Of a DNA stretch of 46,762 nucleotides, positions 3,427 through 45,219 are shown piece after piece; positions within the stretch are counted from its first letter, which is position 1, and every line of letters starts with the position of its first letter. The position numbers and the translations under genes were made by a program. Origin of the DNA: a virus. The notes under the pieces were generated by a model, which did not search any database, had not been told where the DNA came from, and worked only from the letters and a program-made list of their open reading frames with translations. The stretch spans positions 1-46,762 of the IMG/VR virus record IMGVR_UViG_3300042861_000953, one strand, 5' to 3'.

Positions 3427-4679
3427 CCGCCGATTTCCTGTTCGAGCGTGACCGTGCGATGATCCTCGCGCCAGTCGGCGCGGGCAAAACAGCCATCACG
3501 CTGACAGCGATGCAGGACATGACAGAGCGGAGGCTGGTCCGGCGCTGGCTGGTGCTGGCCCCCAAGCGTGTGGCGCAGTCCGTCTGGCCTGTCGAGCAGC
3601 CGAAGTGGGCGCCGAGGCTGACCATGTCCGTTGCGGTCGGCACGCCGAAGCAGCGCCGCGCAGCATTCAAGGCCGACACGCAGGTCGTCGTTACCAACTT
3701 TGAGAACGTCGAATCAATCGAGGGGACGTTTGACGGCGTCGTCTTCGACGAGCTGACGCGGCTGAAGAACCCGTCCGGCGTTCGGTTCAAGAAGCTGGAG
3801 AAACTGATCGAGGGCGTGGAGATCCGCTGGGGCCTGACCGGATCATTCACATCAAACGGGCTGGAGGACGTCTTCGGCCAATGCAAGATCGTGGACCGCG
3901 CGCTGCTGGGCCGGTCAAAGGGCGCGTTTATGCAGCAATACTTCTGCTGCATCCACCGCGAGTTCGGCATGTGGGAGCCGCTGCCCGGCGCGCTGGAGCG
4001 CGTCATGGAGACGATCAAGCCGGCGACCTTCGTGCTGGAGCCCGGCGAATACAAGGACCGGCTGCCGGAGCTGCACACGGTCGAGATGCGCTGCTCGATG
4101 GACCTGACTGCCTACAACCAGATGAAGAAGGACTTTGTGCTGGAGCTGGGCGAGACGATCACGGCGCCGACCGCGGCGTCGGTGACGACCAAGCTGCAAC
4201 AACTGGCTGGCGGATGGGTCTACGGGCCGTCGGGCGCTGAGTGGCTGTCCACGCACAAGTATGACCTGCTGGACGAGATTCTTGAAGAGAACCAGCACGA
4301 CAACACCATCATCGTCTACAACTACAAGGAAGAGTTGGCCGAACTCCAGCGCCGATACCCGAAGGCGCGGATGGTGGATGGCGCCATCGACGACTGGAAC
4401 GCTGGCAAGGTCGAGCTGCTGATGCTCCACCCCAGGAGCGCCGGTCACGGGCTGAACCTTCAGCACGGCGGCAACAAGATCGTCTTCCTGTCGCTGCCGT
4501 GGTCGCTCGAACTTTACGAGCAGACCATCGGCCGGCTGCACCGCTCCGGCCAGACGCGCGACGTGTGGGTCTACAACCTGATCTGTGACAAAACTATTGA
4601 CGAGAGGATCATGCAAGCGTTAAAGGATAAAAGATCTTTAGCAGAGGTGGCGCTGGATGAATTATCGAGAACTGCATGA
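3399..4679 (+). CDS. SNF2/DEAD-like superfamily 2 helicase, copy 1
   Basis: 426 residues from the ATG at 3399 (MGLRAYQEVAADFL), chosen by alignment with MDLRPYQHEAADFL of copy 2. The Walker A motif APVGAGKTAIT lies at residues 24-34 and the DExx box is VVFDELTRLKN. A GLTGSFTSNGLEDVFGQ segment follows. The C-terminal RecA fold carries QTIGRLHRSGQTRDV (motif VI). This is the phage SNF2-type helicase family that is paired with VRR-NUC nucleases and thought to act in replication or recombination. It overlaps the nuclease gene upstream and the small gene at 4657 downstream. Confidence 0.9.
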   Translation: MGLRAYQEVAADFLFERDRAMILAPVGAGKTAITLTAMQDMTERRLVRRWLVLAPKRVAQSVWPVEQPKWAPRLTMSVAVGTPKQRRAAFKADTQVVVTNFENVESIEGTFDGVVFDELTRLKNPSGVRFKKLEKLIEGVEIRWGLTGSFTSNGLEDVFGQCKIVDRALLGRSKGAFMQQYFCCIHREFGMWEPLPGALERVMETIKPATFVLEPGEYKDRLPELHTVEMRCSMDLTAYNQMKKDFVLELGETITAPTAASVTTKLQQLAGGWVYGPSGAEWLSTHKYDLLDEILEENQHDNTIIVYNYKEELAELQRRYPKARMVDGAIDDWNAGKVELLMLHPRSAGHGLNLQHGGNKIVFLSLPWSLELYEQTIGRLHRSGQTRDVWVYNLICDKTIDERIMQALKDKRSLAEVALDELSRTA

Positions 4680-22683: not shown

Positions 22684-23218
22684 CTGGACGCCGGGACTTC
22701 GGTCACAGACGCTCGGCCCGACTGGTGACTTTGTTGGTGAACGTCCTGTTCTAATAGACGACGCAACTTACTTCCGCGATCCGCAGACCAATGTGTCTTA
22801 CGGCATAAAATTAATTAACCAACAGCAATACGACGGTATTGCCGTCAAGACTGTCACGTCGACTTATCCGCAAGTCATGTGGGTCAACATGACTTACCCC
22901 AACATCGAAATGGTCATCTATCCGGTGCCGTTACGGTTGCTGGAATGGCATTTTGTGTCAGTTGAAAAGTTATCCAATCCGGCCAAGCTGGCTACGGCGT
23001 TGACATTTCCGCCCGGTTATCTTCGTGCGTTCCGCTATAATCTGGCCTGCGAAATGGCTCCTGAGTTTGGCGTCGAGCCGTCCGCGCAGGTGCAGCGCAT
23101 CGCCATGTATAGCAAGCGCAATCTGAAGCGCATCAATAACCCTGACGACATCATGGCGCTGCCCTACAGCATCGTCGGAACTAGACAAAGGTACAATATT
23201 TTTGCGGGAAATTATTGA
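22505..23218 (+). CDS. P22 gp4-like tail accessory / head completion protein
   Basis: 237 residues from the ATG at 22505 (MTTTAYDQICGALRLLGVL). The helical N-terminus with TAQDALTALNQMIDSWDTERL and the following VFNWTPGLRSQTLG, then PPGYLRAFRYNLACEMAPEFG, match the P22 gp4 family, which docks under the portal and plugs the neck. In order it follows the capsid genes and precedes the gp10-like gene, as in P22. The stop overlaps the end of a convergent HNH gene by 7 bp. Confidence 0.85.
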   Translation: MTTTAYDQICGALRLLGVLAEGETPSSETAQDALTALNQMIDSWDTERLAVFSTQDQVFNWTPGLRSQTLGPTGDFVGERPVLIDDATYFRDPQTNVSYGIKLINQQQYDGIAVKTVTSTYPQVMWVNMTYPNIEMVIYPVPLRLLEWHFVSVEKLSNPAKLATALTFPPGYLRAFRYNLACEMAPEFGVEPSAQVQRIAMYSKRNLKRINNPDDIMALPYSIVGTRQRYNIFAGNY

Positions 23219-23661
23219 TTTATCAAGGACTTATAACTAAGGTAAGCAGCATGTGCTTCTTCTGGTGTATCAAAACAACCTATCTTGATATGCTTACGGT
23301 TGAGCATTATTTGCGCGCGCCATTTTCCTTGATGGAGCGATACGCCTCTAAAACCCGATGTATTATTGCAGTTTGGGTGAGTTACGTTGTGCATATTTTG
23401 CGCTCGGCTTACGTCGCGCAAATTATTAAATCGGTTGTTAATTTTGTCGCCGTCTATATGATCGACGTGATGATTAGGCCATTTACCAGTCATATAAAGC
23501 CAAGCCAATCTATGCGCGCTATATCTCCGGCCTTTAACGGATACGCGCCAGTATCCCGATTTCATCTGATCCCCGGCAATAAGCCCTGTGTCTTTACGGG
23601 TAAAAATGCCTGTATCGGGATCGTAAGTAAGTTCTTCTTTGAGAATTTGAACCGTCAGCAT
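23212..23661 (-). CDS. HNH-AP2 homing-type endonuclease
   Basis: 149 residues, AAAGGAGG upstream. The N-terminus LTYDPDTGIFTRKDTG, the HNH core HHVDHIDGDKINNRFNNLR and the C-terminal AP2-like domain (GFRGVSLHQGKWRAQI, then GCFDTPEEAHAAY) are diagnostic. It is the only minus-strand gene in the late region, wedged between the gp4-like and gp10-like genes. Its ribosome-binding site and that of the next gene form an inverted CCTCC/GGAGG pair. It would be transcribed against the late operon. Confidence 0.92.
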   Translation of the reverse strand: MLTVQILKEELTYDPDTGIFTRKDTGLIAGDQMKSGYWRVSVKGRRYSAHRLAWLYMTGKWPNHHVDHIDGDKINNRFNNLRDVSRAQNMHNVTHPNCNNTSGFRGVSLHQGKWRAQIMLNRKHIKIGCFDTPEEAHAAYLSYKSLINQ

Positions 23662-23690
23662 GTTGCCTCCTTTACTGCGGAGGTTTTACC

Positions 23691-33735: not shown

Positions 33736-33922
33736 TTATCATCTCCATGATGGCCGCCCTTTCTCGTAACATGCGCAGCACAGTGTAACGCTGATGCAGT
33801 CGCACTAAGATGGTCGAGCGCCGGGCGTGACGCTGTTCCTCTTCCAGTAGGTCTAAGACCTCCTGTTCCGTCAGATCGGCCAGCCGATCATTTAACATTT
33901 TCCACGTCATCGGCTCGGTCAT
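33710..33922 (-). CDS. Small charged helical protein, copy 2
   Basis: 70 residues. It shares LEEEQRHARRSTILVRLHQR with the 4657 protein. The start overlaps the end of the HNH gene and the end overlaps the next ATG. In copy 1 this gene abuts the SNF2 gene directly; here an HNH gene has come between them. Confidence 0.72.
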   Translation of the reverse strand: MTEPMTWKMLNDRLADLTEQEVLDLLEEEQRHARRSTILVRLHQRYTVLRMLRERAAIMEMINEPSRTAV

Positions 33923-34407
33923 TTGTGCCTCGCAAATTCGCCGTGGTATTTATCTCTAGCTTCGGACGCCACAAGCGCCGCCAATTCTAAGTCATGGACA
34001 AGGCCATAAAATAACATTTTGCCTTTTGACAGTAACATGACTTTCCATTTGCCGCTTACGCTTTGGCTAACATTTTTAACGCCGGATGTATTGTTCGCGC
34101 TTATTTTTCTGTTGTGACCGTTTCGTATAAAATCGGCTGGGCGCAAATTTTCTATTCTGTTGTTCAATGGATTACCGTCTATATGGTCTATATTTTCAGG
34201 TATATAGCCGTGATGAATTAAATAGATCAGTTGATGCACGCCATAATAGCGTTTCTTATACATTGTGTTGCGGTAGCCATTACCGTGCATATGCCCGGCT
34301 TCGTCGCCTATACGCGCGCGGCTACCCGGCTGTATTTTCCAATACAGTTTGCCATCGCGGTATTCCCACACCGCTTTAGCTTCAGTTTGTGTTAGACAGC
34401 TCGGCAA
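33919..34407 (-). CDS. HNH-AP2 homing-type endonuclease
   Basis: 162 residues. HNH core NIDHIDGNPLNNRIENLRPAD, C-terminal AP2-like segment (SGVKNVSQSVSGKWKVML). The start lies inside the last 26 bp of the SNF2 gene and the stop overlaps the next ATG, so it sits neatly in the operon without breaking a gene. It is absent at the equivalent place of the first block. Confidence 0.92.
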   Translation of the reverse strand: MPSCLTQTEAKAVWEYRDGKLYWKIQPGSRARIGDEAGHMHGNGYRNTMYKKRYYGVHQLIYLIHHGYIPENIDHIDGNPLNNRIENLRPADFIRNGHNRKISANNTSGVKNVSQSVSGKWKVMLLSKGKMLFYGLVHDLELAALVASEARDKYHGEFARHK

Positions 34408-35665
34408 GGGCCAACTCCGCTAAAGATTTTTTGTCGTGTAGCGCATCATATATGCGCTCGTCAATAGTTTTATTACACATGATGACATAACACCATACGT
34501 CACGCGTCTGGCCGCTGCGATGCAGCCGGCCGACTGTCTGTTCGAATAGTTCAAGCGACCACGGCAGCGACAGGAAAATGATCTTGTTGCCGCCAAATTG
34601 TAGATTGAGCCCGTGGCCGGCGCTCTTGGGATGAATCGCCAATAGTTCAATCGCGCCGGCGTTCCAGCGTTCGACGGCGTTAGGCGCGTCGATTGTCGTC
34701 ACGTTGAACTGGCGCTGAAGCTCGGCTAATTCTTCTTTGTAATTGTAGACGATAATAGTGTTGTCTCGCTGGTTTTCGTCGAGGATGTCTCGGAGAGATT
34801 CAAACTTTTGGCGTCCAAACCACTGAGCAGCGCCTTGGCTATCATAAGCGAAGCCGGACGTGAGCTGCTGAAGCTTGTTTGTGACAGCAGCCGCTGTCGG
34901 AGCCGTGATCTCTTCATGCACATATTCCTTCTTCATGTTCTCGTATGGCGTGCGGTCCTCAAGCTCGCACCGGATCTGCACAACATGGAGCGGCGGCAGC
35001 TTGTCCTTATACTCGCCAGGCTCCAACACGTATGTCGCCGGCTTGATTGCCTCCATGACTTTTGGCAGCGCTTGCGGCAGCGGCTCCCATTGGCCGTAAT
35101 CGCGGTTCACGCAGTAAAAATATTGCTGTAAGAATGCGCCCTTGCTGCGGCCTAATAACGTCTGATCGACAACCTTGCACTGGCCAAACACGTCTTCTAG
35201 GCCGTTTGACGTAAATGATCCGGTAAGCCCCCAGCGGATCTTAAACTGGTCGAGGATCTTGAGCAGGAACTTGAACCGCTTGCCAGACGGATTTTTAAGC
35301 CGCGTTAGCTCGTCAAATACAATGCCATCAAAGTCTTTCGGGTCAATCGACGGGATGTTGTCGTAGTTGGTGACGACAATATCAACGTCCGACGCAAACG
35401 CTTTCTTGCGTTGCGCTGGCGTGCCAACAGCGACGGCCATGCTCATGTGTTCAGCCCATTTCGGCCGCTCGACAGGCCACACGTCAGTGCAAACGCGCTT
35501 CGGCGCTAACACAAGCCAACGGTCGCAATGACCTTTGCTGGTCATGTCCGACATAGCCGTTAGCGTAATCGCTGTCTTGCCCGCGCCCACTGGCGCAAGG
35601 ATCATTGCCCGATCATGGGCAAAGAGGAAATCGGCGGCTTCGTGCTGGTATGGGCGCAGATCCAT
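34382..35665 (-). CDS. SNF2/DEAD-like helicase, copy 2
   Basis: 427 residues. GAGGATG lies upstream of the ATG. Walker A APVGAGKTAIT, DExx box IVFDELTRLKN and motif VI QTVGRLHRSGQTRDV. It is clearly homologous along its length to copy 1 at 3399 but diverged, with lower GC at third positions. It overlaps the VRR-NUC gene by 64 bp. Confidence 0.92.
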   Translation of the reverse strand: MDLRPYQHEAADFLFAHDRAMILAPVGAGKTAITLTAMSDMTSKGHCDRWLVLAPKRVCTDVWPVERPKWAEHMSMAVAVGTPAQRKKAFASDVDIVVTNYDNIPSIDPKDFDGIVFDELTRLKNPSGKRFKFLLKILDQFKIRWGLTGSFTSNGLEDVFGQCKVVDQTLLGRSKGAFLQQYFYCVNRDYGQWEPLPQALPKVMEAIKPATYVLEPGEYKDKLPPLHVVQIRCELEDRTPYENMKKEYVHEEITAPTAAAVTNKLQQLTSGFAYDSQGAAQWFGRQKFESLRDILDENQRDNTIIVYNYKEELAELQRQFNVTTIDAPNAVERWNAGAIELLAIHPKSAGHGLNLQFGGNKIIFLSLPWSLELFEQTVGRLHRSGQTRDVWCYVIMCNKTIDERIYDALHDKKSLAELALAELSNTN

Positions 35666-38543: not shown

Positions 38544-38725
38544 AGATGTTGGAAATGCTGACAGACACAACGTTGTATCTTTTCTTCTACGGCTTTGGCC
38601 TACTCTCGGGAGTATTCGTATCATGGTTAGAATCATATTCTGCATCGCGCTCTTATCGTCATCAGCAGCAGCTCAAGAGATCTCAGTCTGGGGCGGCCCA
38701 AACGGGCCAGTCGCAACCGAACTGA
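38537..38725 (+). CDS. Small membrane protein
   Basis: About 62 residues (ATG at 38537; ATG at 38546 also possible). One membrane helix (LYLFFYGFGLLSGVFVSWL) followed by a polar glutamine-rich tail. The tail overlaps the next gene in another frame for about 100 bp. Function unknown. Confidence 0.5.
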   Translation: MVKMLEMLTDTTLYLFFYGFGLLSGVFVSWLESYSASRSYRHQQQLKRSQSGAAQTGQSQPN

Positions 38726-38862
38726 GCTACCCGAACGAGAACTTTTACTACACGCCCTACGGCCAGATTAGCGCACCAAAGGTGGGCGACATGACCGTCT
38801 ATAACGGCCCGAATGGAGAGTATCTTGGCTATCATGTGGGTGGATTTCGAGACGCGGAGTGA
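38623..38862 (+). CDS. Small secreted protein
   Basis: 79 residues with a clear Sec-type signal (MVRIIFCIALLSSSAAAQ) and probable cleavage after AAA. The mature part (ISVWGGPNGPV, NFYYTPYGQ, VYNGPNGEYLGY) has a repeated NGP turn. It overlaps the membrane-protein gene and the polymerase start. A periplasmic product inside a replication operon is unexpected. Role unknown. Confidence 0.6.
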   Translation: MVRIIFCIALLSSSAAAQEISVWGGPNGPVATELSYPNENFYYTPYGQISAPKVGDMTVYNGPNGEYLGYHVGGFRDAE

Positions 38863-40738
38863 ATGCGATCTGCCGGTGAATGGCGTGTATAACTATGCGC
38901 GCCATCACTCTACAGAAGTCATTTGCATGTCTTACGCGTATGCCGACGGCCTTGTGCAGACATGGCGGCCGGGCGAACCTATGCCGCCGATCAAGAGTCA
39001 GATCCGTGCACATAACGCAGCATTTGAGCGGCTTATTTTCTGGCACGTCCTGAAGATGCCAATACCGTTAGAACAATTCTACTGCACCGCTGCGCAAGCG
39101 CGGGCGAACTGTGCGCCGGGGAGTTTAGAAGATGTGGGACGATTTGCGGGAACCGATATGCGGAAGGATCATCGTGGGGCGGCTCTTGTTCGTGCTTGTT
39201 GTATTCCTCCCTTCCGCGATGATCTTATACCAGAGCTTATCGAATACTGCGAACAAGACGTGCGCACAATGCGCGCCGCTAGCAAAGCCATGCGGGAACT
39301 GACGCCGGAAGAACTGGAGGATTACCATGTTAACGAGCGCATCAATGATCGTGGCGTTCTTGTCGATCAGCGCCTATGCCGCGCGGCGGTCAAGTATGCG
39401 GCTGACGAACTTCAAGAGATCGAAGCTACGGTTAAAACCGTCACTAACGGTGAGATCACGACTGTTAGAAGTCCTAGAATGCGACTGTGGGTGCAAGAGC
39501 GGGTGGGGCCGACAGCGCGGAAGCTCATGGAACGAGACGACAAGTTCTCCATTGACAAAACCGTCAGGGCTAACCTACTGGCCATAGACGACCCGGAAGA
39601 GGTGCCTCCCGATGTCAGAGAAGTCATACAATGCGCGGACGATCTTTGGGCGTCTTCTGTTGCTAAATTTAATCGCCTTGATAATCTTGCTTGTGACGAT
39701 GGCCGTGTTAGAGGGGCTTTCGTCTTTGCGGGAGGATCAGCCACAGGACGGGCTTCCTCGTATGGTGCGCAAGTCCACAACTTTACACGTAAGTGCGCCG
39801 ATGACCCGGAAGCCGTGCGACATGCAATGGTTCGGAGTCATGCAATCGTGCCTCGTTACGGACGACGCGTCACAGACGTATTGCGAGGTATGTTACGGCC
39901 AGCCTTGATCCCTGAAAAGGGCAAGCAGTTCGTCGTCGCTGACTGGAGCGCCATCGAAGGCCGCGTTAATCCGTGGCTGTCCGCCAGAGGTGATGATAAG
40001 TTACAGGCGTTCCGCGACAGACTTGACCCATATATTGTGAACGCTGCCGCTACATTTCGTGTCAAGTATGATGAAGTAGACAAGTCGCAACGCCAAGTCG
40101 GTAAAGTTCAAGAGCTTGCGTGCGGATTCGGCGGCGGCGTTGGCGCGTTTGCGGCGATGGGCCGCGTCTATGGTCTGCATCTTCCTGAAGCTGAAGCGAA
40201 AAAGATGGTCGACGCATGGCGTCAAGCTAACCCATGGTCAGTGCCGTTTTGGTCTGATCTTGAGATTGCTTACATTCGTGCGTTGCGCAACCCCGGTAAA
40301 GTGTTTGAGGCTGGTAAAATAAAATACTTGGCCGACAAACAGCACCTTTGGTATGCTCTGCCTTCTGGCCGGGTGCTTTGTTACCCGAACGCCCGGTTCG
40401 AAGAAGATGGTTCGATCACCTATTCAAAAGCGTCTTGGAAGCCTGCGGCGGATGCTAAAGAGTGGCCTCGGGGTCGGCTCTGGAGAGGGCTGGCTTGCGA
40501 GAACGTCACACAAGCGACCGCCCATGATCTTCTACGTGAGGCTCTGCGGCGTCTTGATAAGTTGGGCTTTGAAACTGTTTTACATTGCCACGATGAAATC
40601 GTGCTGCAATGCGATGCGGAAAAGGCGCTTGACTCAAAAGACAAATTAGAAGAGATTATGTGCACGCCTCCTGATTGGTGCGCCGATTTGCCGCTAGAAG
40701 TTGAGGCGTCAATTATGAACCGATACGGAAAGGGTTAG
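38834..40738 (+). CDS. Family A DNA polymerase with 3'-5' exonuclease
   Basis: 634 residues from the ATG at 38834 (MWVDFETRSECDL); an in-frame ATG at 38813 is possible. The exonuclease begins with DFET and ends with the C-terminal exo motif YCEQDVRTM. The polymerase has motif A VADWSAIEGR near residue 368, motif B region RQVGKVQELACGFGGGV near 420 and motif C HCHDE near 585. It is the replicative polymerase. The last 25 residues occur a second time downstream of the inserted HNH gene. Confidence 0.93.
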   Translation: MWVDFETRSECDLPVNGVYNYARHHSTEVICMSYAYADGLVQTWRPGEPMPPIKSQIRAHNAAFERLIFWHVLKMPIPLEQFYCTAAQARANCAPGSLEDVGRFAGTDMRKDHRGAALVRACCIPPFRDDLIPELIEYCEQDVRTMRAASKAMRELTPEELEDYHVNERINDRGVLVDQRLCRAAVKYAADELQEIEATVKTVTNGEITTVRSPRMRLWVQERVGPTARKLMERDDKFSIDKTVRANLLAIDDPEEVPPDVREVIQCADDLWASSVAKFNRLDNLACDDGRVRGAFVFAGGSATGRASSYGAQVHNFTRKCADDPEAVRHAMVRSHAIVPRYGRRVTDVLRGMLRPALIPEKGKQFVVADWSAIEGRVNPWLSARGDDKLQAFRDRLDPYIVNAAATFRVKYDEVDKSQRQVGKVQELACGFGGGVGAFAAMGRVYGLHLPEAEAKKMVDAWRQANPWSVPFWSDLEIAYIRALRNPGKVFEAGKIKYLADKQHLWYALPSGRVLCYPNARFEEDGSITYSKASWKPAADAKEWPRGRLWRGLACENVTQATAHDLLREALRRLDKLGFETVLHCHDEIVLQCDAEKALDSKDKLEEIMCTPPDWCADLPLEVEASIMNRYGKG

Positions 40739-40740
40739 CC

Positions 40741-41232
40741 GTGGTTACACATAAACGGCTTACAGAATTGTTTGTTTACGTTAAAAGCTCGGGCGATTTT
40801 ATTCGTCGCGTGGCGACAGGACGAAATGGTTGTCATCGTGCGGGTGTATATGCCGGGACGATTCAAAATCATGGTTATCTCGTCATATCTATAGACAAAA
40901 AACGCTATATGGCGCACAGATTAGCTTGGTTCTATGTCCACGGCGTGTGGCCTAAGGGTGATTTAGACCACATAAACGAGGATAAATTAGACAATCGCAT
41001 AGCTAACTTACGCGAAGCGACGCGGCGGCAAAACATGCAGAATGTGCGCCGGCATAAGCATAACATGAGCGGTTACAAAGGTGTGGCGTGGCATCATCAA
41101 CGTAGTAAATGGCGCGCGTATATATTTGATAACTATCGTCAGATTCATTTGGGGCTTTTCGATTCGCGGGAAGCGGCGGCGGCTGCAAGAGCCAAAGCCG
41201 AAAAAGAATATCATTCGCATAGAGTGGTTTGA
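40741..41232 (+). CDS. HNH-AP2 homing-type endonuclease in the polymerase 3' region
   Basis: 163 residues from a GTG two bases after the polymerase stop, AAAGGG upstream. HNH core DLDHINEDKLDNRIANLREA and AP2-like C-terminus (GYKGVAWHHQRSKWRAYI). Its stop overlaps the ATG of the polymerase remnant. The gene probably homes to the polymerase gene and replaced its 3' end. Confidence 0.93.
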   Translation: MVTHKRLTELFVYVKSSGDFIRRVATGRNGCHRAGVYAGTIQNHGYLVISIDKKRYMAHRLAWFYVHGVWPKGDLDHINEDKLDNRIANLREATRRQNMQNVRRHKHNMSGYKGVAWHHQRSKWRAYIFDNYRQIHLGLFDSREAAAAARAKAEKEYHSHRVV

Positions 41233-41309
41233 TGACGACGCCGCCCGTATGGGCGGAAGGACTACCGCTCGACGTAGAAGCGAGCGTTATGGGGAGGTAT
41301 GGCAAGTGA
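41232..41309 (+). pseudogene. Second copy of the DNA polymerase C-terminus
   Basis: 25 codons starting MTTPPVWAEGLPLDVEAS and ending VMGRYGK. The intact polymerase ends MCTPPDWCADLPLEVEAS, IMNRYGKG; 17 of 25 positions are identical. The remnant begins at the same methionine, directly after the HNH gene. It looks like the original 3' end, displaced when the HNH gene arrived with a related 3' end from another phage. Confidence 0.85.
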
Positions 41310-41578
41310 CTAACGAATATGAATATACGCGCAATCTTGATCTTCTAGGCGATTGGCTTGACGCCAAGGGCTACGGCGAAGAGGCAGGGTTGATTACGCG
41401 GTCGATGGATTACATGCACAAGCAAGCCGCCCGCATCGCGGAACTTACAGCGGCGCTGAAACCGTTTGCTGACTGCGGAGTATGGGACGGTTACAAAGAC
41501 GAAGAAGTGTTCAAATTAGGCTTTAAGATTGGCGACCTCCGCGCCGCCCGCGCTGCTATGGAGAAGAAGAATGACTGA
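41306..41578 (+). CDS. Small early protein with RIAELTAALKPF segment
   Basis: 90 residues from a GTG at 41306 that overlaps the polymerase remnant, with GGGAGG upstream. LGDWLDAKGYGEEA, QAARIAELTAALKPFADC and DLRAARAAMEKK. Similar to a class of small phage proteins whose members repeat RIAEL and a C-terminal ARAA. Function unknown. Confidence 0.65.
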   Translation: MTNEYEYTRNLDLLGDWLDAKGYGEEAGLITRSMDYMHKQAARIAELTAALKPFADCGVWDGYKDEEVFKLGFKIGDLRAARAAMEKKND

Positions 41579-41828
41579 CGAACTGATTATGCGCTTACGC
41601 TCAGAAGAAGTTCTTCCATGCGGAGAAGATAGCGTAAATCCTGTGCGTAAGCCTACTGCGCGGGAGATTGAAGCCGCCGACGCTTTTGAAGCGCAGGCGC
41701 GACGGATTGCGGAAATTAAAGCGGCGCTAGACGAAATACTGCATTACACAGGTGGCGCAAATAACGCGCTTGAAGATGAGTATGTAATGGAGCGCGCCCG
41801 CGCCGCTTATCTGGGGGAGAAGGAATGA
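41571..41828 (+). CDS. Small early protein with RIAEIKAAL segment
   Basis: 85 residues; overlaps the preceding gene by 8 bp. AREIEAADAFEAQARRIAEI and a C-terminal ERARAAYLGEKE. It looks paralogous in style to 41306 and 5692. Function unknown. Confidence 0.6.
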   Translation: MTDELIMRLRSEEVLPCGEDSVNPVRKPTAREIEAADAFEAQARRIAEIKAALDEILHYTGGANNALEDEYVMERARAAYLGEKE

Positions 41829-42259
41829 GAGCCTGTGACGGATGCAACAAATGTTGCGAGGGCTGGGTCAGCGGAAGCGCGCTTGGCAAAGACTTTTGGC
41901 CTGGCAGGCCGTGTCATTACAAGACAGGCAAGGGCTGCGCGGTCTATGACGACCGCCCGCATGACCCATGCCAGACGTTTCATTGCGGCTGGCTACAGTT
42001 CGAACAGATCCCGATATGGATGAAGCCGAACGAGTGCGGCGTGATCGTCGTGCCGCGTCAGAAGAAGGGCGAACATTATTTAGATTTTATTGAAGCGGGC
42101 GAGCGCATGAATCCGCGCGTTCTGTCATGGCTTCTTAATGCGTTTGCGTGCGGTCATTTGCGTAACATTCGCTGGCAGCTAGACGGCGGCTGGAATTACG
42201 CCGGCTCGGCTGAATTTATCGAAATCGTACAAGAAGAGCAAAAACATGTCCCTGTTTGA
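41825..42259 (+). CDS. Cysteine-cluster (YkgJ-like) protein
   Basis: 144 residues. The N-terminus CDGCNKCCEGW, then CHYKTGKGCAVYDDRP, and DPCQTFHCGW is the cysteine pattern of the zinc/iron-chelating YkgJ-type family. It overlaps the primase-helicase gene by 14 bp, so it may be made together with it. A metal-bound role in DNA metabolism is possible but unproven. Confidence 0.7.
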   Translation: MRACDGCNKCCEGWVSGSALGKDFWPGRPCHYKTGKGCAVYDDRPHDPCQTFHCGWLQFEQIPIWMKPNECGVIVVPRQKKGEHYLDFIEAGERMNPRVLSWLLNAFACGHLRNIRWQLDGGWNYAGSAEFIEIVQEEQKHVPV

Positions 42260-44525
42260 TTATTTTACCGGACTCGCCCCGGATGGCGAGACAGCGCTGA
42301 TCGTTAAACAGATCGACACCGGCAAGCTGCACAAAGACGGCTCGCCTAAATACACGTGGCCTGCCTACCTGCCGAAGCATAAGCGCAAGGAAGGCGAGAG
42401 CTGGTTTCTTAACACCGGCTCTTTTATTATGGATCGTATGCGTGACAAGCCGTCCGCCAGTGTGGCGAACTGCACGCACGTGCTGTTCATGATGCTGGAC
42501 GACATCGGCACGAAGTCGAAGATTCCGCCGCTTGCGCCGACCGCCATCGTCGAGACGAGCCCCGGTAACTATCAATATTGGTATGCCTACTCTGAGCAGC
42601 CGACCGTCGAGGAACATTGTGCGGCGTTGACGGCGATTGCAGCCGCCGGCTACACCGACCCTGGCGCGACTAACGCCGTGCGTAACTGCCGTCTTCCGGG
42701 CTCCGTAAACGTCAAGCCGGGGCGCGAGGCGTTTGTATGCCGCGAGGTGGAGTTTAACAAGGTAGAATACACGCTCGCGGAGATCTGCGCGGCGCTTGGC
42801 GTGACGCCAGCCGAAGTCGGTAACGCACAGCGTATTACGTTCCGCGTAAAAGACACCGGCAACGACACCGTGCTGGCGTGGTTGAACGAGAACAGCCTTG
42901 TTACGTCCGGCGTAAATCAAGAAGGCTGGTGCGGCGTTGTCTGCCCGAATTACGAAGGTCACACAGATGGACAGATTGAAGCGCGATATAAGCCGCAAGA
43001 TCGTTCGTTCTGTTGCTATCACGCTCATTGCGAGCATCTTGATAGCAAGTTCTTTTGCGATTGGGTATCGGAACAAGGTGGGCCGCGCACCATTCCCGGC
43101 TTGCGAGACGATCTCATTGCCGACTACACCAGCAAGATTAGCGCTCTGACGCCGACCGAAGCCTTCCCCGACGAGGCGGCGGCGCGTATTGCCGAAGTCG
43201 AGCGCAAGCAAGCGGGACGTGAAGAACGCGCGGGCTGGCATGAGCGCTTTGCTTACATCGTCGATGACGACGCTTATTTTGACAAGGACACGTGCAGCGA
43301 GATCAGCCGGCGCGCGTTCAATGCTTTGTTCCGGCACATTGACTGCCGGTCGACCGGCGAAAAACCGCGCAAGGTTGAGGCGTCGATCTGGTTCGACGAG
43401 CAGCGTGAGGCGATGGGCGGCTACGCGCTCAAAGGTCTGACCTATGCCGCCGGCGAAGACTGGATGGTTCATAAAGACGGGCTTGTCTATGGCAACGTCT
43501 GGCGTGACGCGCGGCCTGCTATTTCGACACGCTACGATCCGACGCCATGGCTAGAGCATTGCCGACGGCTTGTGCCGGACACGCAAGAGCTCGAGCATAT
43601 CTGGAACGTAATGGCGTACAAGCTGCAACGCGCGGACGTGAAGGTTAATCACGCGATCTTGCACGGCGGTAAGGGCGGCTGCGGCAAGGATACGATGTGG
43701 GCTCCGTTTATCTGGTCTGTGTGCGGCCCGCACGAGAAGAACAAAGGTCTGATCGACAATGACAGCCTGACAAGCCAATGGGGCTATCAGCTAGAGGCTG
43801 AGATCGTCGTTCTTAATGAGCTGAAGGAGCCGGAAGCAAAAGATCGTCGGGTGCTGGCGAACAGACTGAAGCCGATCATCGCCGCGCCGCCGGAAATGTT
43901 GACGATCAATCGCAAGGGCTTGCATCCTTATAAGATGGTCAATCGTCTCTTTATGCTGGCGTTCACTAACGAAGACATGCCGATCACGCTGGACAGCGAC
44001 GACCGGCGCTGGTTCTGCGTCTGGTCGGACGCGGACAAGATGACGGGCGAAGAAGCAAAGCGAATCTGGTCTTGGTATCACAACGGCGGCTTTGAAGCGG
44101 TCGCGGGTTGGTTACGGACGCGGGACGTGTCGGCGTTTAACCCCCAAGCGATTCCGCCGATGACCGATTATAAGCAAAAGCTGATCTATGTCGGCATGAG
44201 CAACGCGGAGAGCTTCATTTATCATCTGATCGAAAAGCAGGAAGCGCCGTTTAATGTGGACGTTATCTGCGGCCCTTGGCATGAGATTATTCGGCAGATG
44301 GGCCAGACCGCGCCGGACAATATAAGGATGCGGCTTGTGCAGCCGGCGCTTCATCATGCCCTGAAGGAAGCCGGGTGGGTTGACAAAGGGCTTTGCATGT
44401 CCCCGAAATACACGTCGAAGCGGCACATATTCGTGCGGCCCGAACTAGCGTCTTTGCCTAAAGCCAAGCTGCGCGAGATGGTCGAACCGGAGGCGAGGGA
44501 CAATGTCATCGCACTTAAAAATTGA
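42246..44525 (+). CDS. Primase-helicase (RepB-like primase, SF3-type/DUF5906 helicase)
   Basis: 759 residues. The N-terminal primase region includes AIVETSPGNYQYWYA near 99-113 and a NAVRNCRLPGSVNVKPG segment. A cysteine-rich WCGVVCPNYEGHTDGQIEAR / CCYHAHCEH region may bind zinc. The helicase Walker A is GGKGGCGKDT near 475, followed by VVLNELKEPEAKDRR and FTNEDMPITLDSDDRRW, typical of DUF5906 helicases. It would prime and unwind DNA for the family A polymerase. Confidence 0.88.
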   Translation: MSLFDYFTGLAPDGETALIVKQIDTGKLHKDGSPKYTWPAYLPKHKRKEGESWFLNTGSFIMDRMRDKPSASVANCTHVLFMMLDDIGTKSKIPPLAPTAIVETSPGNYQYWYAYSEQPTVEEHCAALTAIAAAGYTDPGATNAVRNCRLPGSVNVKPGREAFVCREVEFNKVEYTLAEICAALGVTPAEVGNAQRITFRVKDTGNDTVLAWLNENSLVTSGVNQEGWCGVVCPNYEGHTDGQIEARYKPQDRSFCCYHAHCEHLDSKFFCDWVSEQGGPRTIPGLRDDLIADYTSKISALTPTEAFPDEAAARIAEVERKQAGREERAGWHERFAYIVDDDAYFDKDTCSEISRRAFNALFRHIDCRSTGEKPRKVEASIWFDEQREAMGGYALKGLTYAAGEDWMVHKDGLVYGNVWRDARPAISTRYDPTPWLEHCRRLVPDTQELEHIWNVMAYKLQRADVKVNHAILHGGKGGCGKDTMWAPFIWSVCGPHEKNKGLIDNDSLTSQWGYQLEAEIVVLNELKEPEAKDRRVLANRLKPIIAAPPEMLTINRKGLHPYKMVNRLFMLAFTNEDMPITLDSDDRRWFCVWSDADKMTGEEAKRIWSWYHNGGFEAVAGWLRTRDVSAFNPQAIPPMTDYKQKLIYVGMSNAESFIYHLIEKQEAPFNVDVICGPWHEIIRQMGQTAPDNIRMRLVQPALHHALKEAGWVDKGLCMSPKYTSKRHIFVRPELASLPKAKLREMVEPEARDNVIALKN

Positions 44526-44709: not shown

Positions 44710-44824
44710 TCTGGTAATCTGCTACGGCTTCATTTTTCTATATTGGCATGAGTATAGTGCGCAGCGACGCCTGCTGCGCGGGCAGCTAATGCCTGCTCTT
44801 TTGTTTCGTAGTAGCCAAGGTTGA
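44690..44824 (+). CDS. 44-residue membrane protein, 3' end overlapped by a convergent HNH gene
   Basis: MVSLVRDLVICYGFIFLYW is a membrane segment. It overlaps the previous gene by 20 bp and its last 95 bp lie antisense to the HNH gene end. Its natural end may have been lost when the HNH gene arrived. Confidence 0.4.
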   Translation: MVSLVRDLVICYGFIFLYWHEYSAQRRLLRGQLMPALLFRSSQG

Positions 44825-45188
44825 TGGCTTTACGTTTTTTGTAGACGTAAGCATTCCATTTTTGGCTACCTTTATGAAAATAAACGCCCAGCGGTTTACC
44901 GCGATTCTGGCAATTTTCGCCGCTTGTCGCCAACCTAAGATTTTCTAGCCGATTATCTGATTTGTCGCGGTTTATGTGGTCTATTTGCGGTGCAGGCCAC
45001 TCGCCATAATGCATGGCCCATACGATGCAATGCGCGAGATAACTGCGCCGATCTGCGTATACGCTTATATAGCCCTTTTTAGGTGTTCCTGCCGGTTTGC
45101 CGGCACGTTTGCCTATCCGGCGCGTCAACTGGCCAGTTTGCGCGTCGTAAGAAAATAGCTCGTTAAGTCGGTCTGATGTCGGTCGCAT
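44730..45188 (-). CDS. HNH-AP2 homing-type endonuclease
   Basis: 152 residues. LNELFSYDAQTGQLTRRIGK, HNH core QIDHINRDKSDNRLENLRLA and AP2-like PLGVYFHKGSQKWNAYV. It faces the replication operon from the end. This is the fifth HNH gene of the window. Confidence 0.92.
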   Translation of the reverse strand: MRPTSDRLNELFSYDAQTGQLTRRIGKRAGKPAGTPKKGYISVYADRRSYLAHCIVWAMHYGEWPAPQIDHINRDKSDNRLENLRLATSGENCQNRGKPLGVYFHKGSQKWNAYVYKKRKAINLGYYETKEQALAARAAGVAAHYTHANIEK

Positions 45189-45219
45189 AGGTTCTTATAC
45201 TATGCGGGGATAGGATTGT

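What the first reader, a model, noticed from the sequence alone, without database searches (positions are those of the whole stretch)
40570..41309. HNH gene has replaced the DNA polymerase 3' end and left the old end behind
The polymerase ends MCTPPDWCADLPLEVEAS then IMNRYGKG. Directly after the HNH gene a 25-codon frame reads MTTPPVWAEGLPLDVEAS then VMGRYGK, with 17 of 25 residues the same, starting at the same methionine. This fits a free-standing homing endonuclease that carried a matching 3' end from a related phage, restored the polymerase frame and displaced the resident end. It is a clear record of a homing event in an essential gene and shows the insertion point to the codon.
Basis: partly seen in the sequence, partly recalled or inferred. 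Interest (0 to 1): 0.8.

Follow-up and report, generated by a model that had tools for sequence, protein, structure and literature searches.

The report
HNH gene swapped polymerase's tail end
In this uncultured virus a DNA-cutting "homing" gene arrived together with a foreign version of the last part of the DNA polymerase gene, which now completes the polymerase, while 25 codons of the virus's own old ending sit unused just behind the intruder; fungal mitochondria show the same arrangement, but we found no report of it in a phage.

Summary
The polymerase ends MCTPPDWCADLPLEVEASIMNRYGKG; after the HNH gene a 25-codon frame reads MTTPPVWAEGLPLDVEASVMGRYGK (17/25 aa, 44/75 nt identical). Another metagenome contig carries the same HNH/leftover junction, so it is not an assembly error.

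One correction. The right junction is at the leftover's ATG (41232), but the left junction lies about 60 codons before the polymerase stop (40549-40555), just after a strongly conserved DNA block. The foreign tract is therefore about 680 bp: the last ~61 polymerase codons, including catalytic motif C, plus the HNH gene. About 28 resident codons were lost.

Trees agree: HNH presence needs 6 changes on the polymerase-body tree but 1 on the tail tree. At least one unrelated HNH type (NUMOD4-like, L031) shows the same tail swap at the same breakpoint. The anatomy matches the "hybrid gene" mobile ORFs of fungal mtDNA. Cleavage by the HNH protein is inferred, not shown.

The parts
38813..40738 (+). 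Family-A DNA polymerase gene, now a chimera: resident body up to about 40548, foreign 3' end from about 40549 (start codon not verified)
   Evidence: Pfam DNA_pol_A 4.6e-17; body/tail comparison
40499..40552 (+). Conserved block ENVTQATAHDLLREALRR next to the left junction; likely homology arm for the recombination
   Evidence: Highest third-position conservation of the gene among 19 HNH-free relatives, 0.86 against median 0.56
40549..40555 (.). Left junction: window identical to HNH-free L005 over 40421-40548, then diverges at once
   Evidence: Codon alignment
40549..40738 (+). Foreign polymerase 3' end (about 61 codons, includes motif C HDE and an extra C-terminal Gly)
   Evidence: 58-62% nt to closest HNH-free relatives, 82-99% to HNH+ L028, L007, L003, L002; tail tree
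40741..41232 (+). HNH_3 + AP2-like free-standing endonuclease gene (GTG start, 163 aa)
   Evidence: Pfam HNH_3 2.6e-17; AP2 5e-6, below its cut-off; plant AP2 protein of the PDB 6.7e-7 over residues 87-159
41230..41234 (.). Right junction TGATG: HNH stop overlaps the ATG of the displaced end; shared with resident ...GTGATGACG
   Evidence: Junction DNA
41232..41309 (+). Displaced resident polymerase 3' end, 25 codons plus stop
   Evidence: 79-91% nt and 20-24/25 aa to tails of HNH-free close relatives, 59% nt to the genome's own pol end
41306..41578 (+). Next gene (90 aa, no Pfam match); its GTG start overlaps the displaced stop, as next genes overlap the pol stop in many HNH-free relatives

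Best explanation
A free-standing HNH-AP2 homing endonuclease gene entered this virus as one tract with the polymerase 3' end that lay upstream of it in the donor. Proposed steps: (1) the HNH protein of a co-infecting virus cut the resident polymerase gene near motif C or the last 25 codons [inferred]; (2) the left end was resected to the conserved block ENVTQATAHDLLREALRR and repaired from the donor by homologous recombination, copying the donor's last ~61 polymerase codons and the HNH gene [left junction shown; repair inferred]; (3) the right end was joined at TGATG, leaving the resident's last 25 codons behind the HNH stop [junction shown; microhomology joining inferred]. The polymerase is a complete chimera and the leftover is debris that decays (partly deleted in L002). 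The new tail differs by ~40% of nucleotides, so it probably also lacks the cutting site and makes the allele resistant [inferred].
For: Leftover matches HNH-free relatives' ends, present end matches HNH+ relatives' ends. Sharp left breakpoint against L005. Body against tail identities: L005 90/58, L006 88/60, L009 89/62, but HNH+ L028 74/82. HNH-AP2 label: 6 changes on the body tree (at least 5 forced), 1 on the tail tree, support 98/95; AU test rejects one HNH-AP2 clade on bodies (p 1.8e-45) and the body clade on tails (p 1e-102). The junction occurs in a second contig. In L002 the leftover is cut short, consistent with a deletion between GCCGCCCG repeats. Unrelated HNH gene with the same breakpoint in L031. 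HNH_3 domain and motif residues conserved.
Against: No cleavage data. No donor or recipient was found that gives the exact right joint; the donor's HNH end is unknown. A full leftover is seen only in the window and the near-identical L088; other carriers have none or a few codons. For carriers other than the window the direction (gain or loss) is not shown, and the separate placement of W, L002 and L003 on the body tree is only marginally supported (AU p about 0.04).
Confidence: 0.85

Rival explanations
1. Ordinary phage mosaicism: a homologous crossover in the conserved block plus an illegitimate joint on the right brought in pol tail and HNH gene as passengers; the HNH protein played no part.
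For: All sequence features except the repeated HNH association would look the same. HNH-free L021/L022 also differ just between LRRL and MTTPP.
Against: All 11 HNH-AP2 carriers tested share one tail clade while their bodies do not; a NUMOD4-like HNH gene shows the same breakpoint (L031), and body-to-tail drops are larger in HNH+ loci than in HNH-free ones (p about 1e-9, rows not independent).
Confidence: 0.1
2. Duplication of the polymerase end inside this genome around the HNH gene, followed by divergence of one copy.
For: Two homologous ends in one genome.
Against: The copies are 59% identical in nucleotides while each is up to 91-100% identical to ends of other viruses.
Confidence: 0.01
3. 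The 25-codon leftover is kept for a function, such as translational coupling of HNH and the next gene through TGATG and GTGA overlaps.
For: Frame intact; both overlaps present; L002 keeps a shorter frame with overlaps at both ends.
Against: L003, L007 and L028 lack it and the HNH gene leads straight into the next gene; the overlaps follow from pol-stop/next-start overlaps that many HNH-free relatives have; intactness can reflect recency.
Confidence: 0.1
4. Alternative exon or intron: HNH and first tail are spliced out and the old tail is used.
For: Two alternative 3' ends of one gene stand side by side.
Against: No Rfam intron match in 38700-42400; relatives use the first end with no second copy; the left junction is inside coding sequence.
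Confidence: 0.01

Closest known systems
Hybrid-gene mobile ORFs of fungal mitochondria (Allomyces atp6, Paquin 1994 as cited in PMC3630166; Glomus sp. atp6, cox2, nad3, atp9, PMC3630166)
   Same: Endonuclease ORF behind a foreign C-terminal end that is in phase with the resident gene; native end displaced downstream; native end closest to relatives (Glomus atp6: 91.2% nt to a close relative against 63.5% between the two copies; here 79-91% against 59%).
   Different: LAGLIDADG or GIY-YIG endonucleases in mitochondria; here HNH-AP2 in a tailed-phage-like virus, target a DNA polymerase, with ~28 resident codons replaced and carriers with different right joints.
Free-standing seg/mob endonucleases of T4 and relatives (review PMC2988022)
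   Same: Free-standing endonuclease genes near replication genes, transfer with co-conversion of flanking sequence by break repair.
   Different: The insertions into genes described there (mobE in Aeh1 nrdA, mobA in T4 gene 60) split the gene; here the gene stays whole because its 3' end comes with the element.
HNH-AP2 / IPA-HNH homing endonucleases of phages (PMC10448857, PMC2248197)
   Same: Same domain pair; 29% of IPA-HNH genes lie near DNA polymerase genes (PMC10448857).
   Different: The study of Xanthomonas phages found no conserved flanks and proposed sequence-independent spread (PMC2248197); here the flank, a polymerase tail, travels with the gene.
Group I intron with HNH endonuclease in phage DNA polymerase genes (I-PfoP3I, PMC3428280; I-HmuI from own knowledge)
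   Same: HNH endonuclease tied to a phage DNA polymerase gene.
   Different: No intron here; the gene is preserved by tail replacement, not by splicing.

Membership tests
Free-standing HNH-AP2 homing endonuclease | HNH_3 nuclease domain with conserved motif | tested here: met
   Pfam 2.6e-17, above cut-off; motif residues invariant in 7 relatives
Free-standing HNH-AP2 homing endonuclease | C-terminal AP2 DNA-binding domain | tested here: inconclusive
   Pfam AP2 E 5e-6 but 27.1 bits under the 33.3 cut-off; a plant AP2 protein matches residues 87-159 at 6.7e-7
Free-standing HNH-AP2 homing endonuclease | Empty alleles in close relatives and sporadic distribution | tested here: met
Free-standing HNH-AP2 homing endonuclease | Site-specific cleavage of the empty allele | not testable with these tools
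   needs a cleavage assay
Hybrid-gene mobile ORF (fungal mtDNA type) | Foreign C-terminal end in frame with the resident gene, followed by endonuclease ORF | tested here: met
Hybrid-gene mobile ORF (fungal mtDNA type) | Native end displaced downstream and closest to relatives without the element | tested here: met
Hybrid-gene mobile ORF (fungal mtDNA type) | Mitochondrial location, LAGLIDADG or GIY-YIG endonuclease | tested here: not met
   virus record, HNH_3 domain; hence 'works like', not 'member of'
Group I intron with homing endonuclease | Intron RNA around the endonuclease gene | tested here: not met
   no Rfam intron match

The most novel reading that the evidence does not exclude
In this group of viruses, HNH genes of more than one family behind the family-A DNA polymerase spread as a two-part element: a divergent polymerase 3' end with catalytic motif C, which both restores the gene and removes the cutting site, plus the nuclease gene. 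This would be a non-intron, non-intein way to invade an essential gene harmlessly, reached more than once, and the phage counterpart of fungal mitochondrial hybrid genes.
Probability: 0.4. Interest if true: 0.72.

Novelty: new variant of a known kind. Interest (0 to 1): 0.57.

Why it matters
Free-standing homing endonucleases are usually pictured as sitting harmlessly between genes or splitting them. This locus preserves both ends of a recent event and shows a third way: replacing the end of an essential gene and carrying that end as cargo. It accounts for body/tail mosaicism in these polymerases, gives exact recipient sequences for cutting assays, and links phage homing to the hybrid genes of fungal mitochondria.

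Tried and rejected
In-genome duplication: rejected by identities. Assembly chimera: rejected by L088 and L002. Intron: no match. Leftovers behind other HNH genes: none in 9 HNH genes of named phages and none strong among 107 local comparisons, apart from a short suggestive one in L147 (KVMTRYGK right after the HNH stop; too short to score). No clear end duplication at three further HNH-AP2-like genes of this window. Correlation of HNH, tail and body identities was useless because all three correlate at about 0.96; only tree topology and breakpoints discriminate. Several paper searches found fungal cases but no phage case; subscription journals are mostly not held, and Paquin 1994 itself could not be read.

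Full report
Observation. The two ends are where the finding puts them. The polymerase stops at 40738, the HNH frame runs 40741-41232, and a 25-codon frame starts at the ATG that overlaps the HNH stop (41232) and ends at 41309, overlapping the GTG of the next gene. The peptides match in 17 of 25 positions without gaps; a local alignment scores 94 against shuffles, z = 17.8. The junction is present in a contig of a different metagenome, identical over 1175 nt (L088), and the left part of it in L002, so it is not an assembly artefact.

The decisive comparison. A search of IMG/VR with the polymerase returned 80 loci, many of them close. HNH-free close relatives end ...HVHDEIVLESDRPEEAKALLEEVMTTPPxWAEGLPLDVEAxIMGRYGK*, which is the leftover's version; relatives with the same HNH-AP2 gene (L002, L003, L007, L028, L029, and more distantly L064, L065, L149, L152, L153) end ...MCTPPxWC...RYGKG*, the window's present version. 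The leftover is 91% identical in nucleotides to L019, 88% (24/25 residues) to L027, and 59% to the genome's own polymerase end. Of 17 IMG/VR loci with the tail motif, 16 continue in frame from a polymerase; the one exception is the L088 contig, where it follows the HNH gene. So the second copy is the resident end and the first is foreign.

Where the junctions are. Against HNH-free L005 the window is identical from 40421 to 40548 and then diverges at once. The foreign tract therefore begins at 40549-40555, about 61 codons before the polymerase stop, not at the methionine. It includes motif C (HDE). The ~28 resident codons between this point and the methionine are gone. The left junction abuts the block ENVTQATAHDLLREALRR, which has the highest third-position conservation of the whole gene among 19 HNH-free relatives (0.86 against a median of 0.56) and is nearly the same in recipients and in HNH+ genomes such as L003, L007 and L028: a natural homology arm. 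On the right, HNH stop and resident sequence share TGATG (resident GTGATGACG, junction TTTGATGACG). Other carriers have other right joints: L003 and L028 at the last codon (AAATGA), L147 possibly eight codons from the end. In L002, which probably shares the window's event, the leftover is cut short, consistent with a deletion between GCCGCCCG repeats, as expected for useless debris.

Body against tail. The polymerase body of the window is 84-90% identical to its closest HNH-free relatives while the tail is 58-62%; for HNH+ L028 it is the reverse, 74% and 82%. On a tree of bodies the HNH-AP2 label needs six changes, at least five forced by supported branches; on a tree of tails it needs one, with 98/95 support. 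The body data reject a single HNH-AP2 clade (p 1.8e-45; W, L002, L003, L007 and L028 alone p 9e-6), and the tail data reject the body clade (p 1e-102). Tail and HNH gene thus move together and independently of the body. Direction is shown only for the window, by its leftover; elsewhere part of the changes could be losses by recombination. The test for W, L002 and L003 alone is marginal (p about 0.04).

Beyond one family. L031 carries an unrelated, NUMOD4-like HNH gene behind the polymerase (type judged from its sequence by eye, not by a profile search). It is identical to HNH-free L034 for 93 nt up to the same breakpoint and then has a different tail, also ending in KG. L066 and L070, with similar HNH genes, drop from 87% to 55% and from 85% to 60%. 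L015-L016 are a mild case: they keep a resident-type end with the HNH gene after the stop codon. Across the set, the drop from body to tail identity is larger in HNH+ loci (p about 1e-9, rows not independent). Exceptions among HNH-free loci are L021/L022, which differ just in the stretch between LRRL and MTTPP, as a conversion without HNH inheritance, or a later HNH loss, would leave it, and the distant L076.

Mechanism. The simplest account is homing by double-strand break repair with one legitimate and one illegitimate joint: cut in the resident 3' end, invasion on the left through the conserved block, copying of donor tail and HNH gene, and a microhomology joint on the right. The HNH_3 domain is clear and its motif intact; the AP2 domain is likely but below Pfam's cut-off. 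Cleavage, its site and the resistance of the new allele are inferences. Ordinary mosaicism with a passenger HNH gene is the main rival.

Comparison with the known. The same anatomy was described for mobile ORFs in fungal mitochondria: a foreign C-terminal end completes the gene, an endonuclease ORF follows, the native end remains downstream and is closest to relatives (PMC3630166, which also cites Allomyces atp6, Paquin 1994). T4 free-standing endonucleases show flanking co-conversion, but their described insertions into genes split them (PMC2988022). HNH-AP2 genes are often near phage DNA polymerases (PMC10448857). No phage example of a displaced host-gene end was found in the papers searched, which is a limited library. 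Hence: new variant of a known kind.

Noticed in passing
window 40499-40552: The block ENVTQATAHDLLREALRR has the strongest third-position conservation of the whole polymerase gene in HNH-free relatives; it may be a recombination hotspot or part of an endonuclease recognition site.
   Followed up: partly
window 23215-23685 (-), 33922-34419 (-), 44733-45194 (-): Three more HNH-AP2-like genes in the same virus; none shows a clear duplicated end of a neighbouring gene.
   Followed up: partly
L021 / L022, polymerase 3' end: Two HNH-free relatives (97% body) differ just between LRRL and MTTPP; possible conversion without the HNH gene, or HNH loss.
   Followed up: partly
L147, right after its HNH gene (locus 3980-4025): Frame KVMTRYGK* directly behind the HNH stop looks like a shorter displaced polymerase end in a distant virus.
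   Followed up: partly
L031, L066, L070 and L015-L017, behind pol: Different NUMOD4-like HNH genes occupy the same slot behind pol; L031, L066 and L070 also have replaced tails, L015-L016 only mildly so.
   Followed up: partly
window 41306-41828: Small genes between pol and the primase share short coding motifs (ARIAELxAALKPFAD, LRAARAAY) that recur in other arrangements in relatives; a fast-shuffling region.
   Followed up: no
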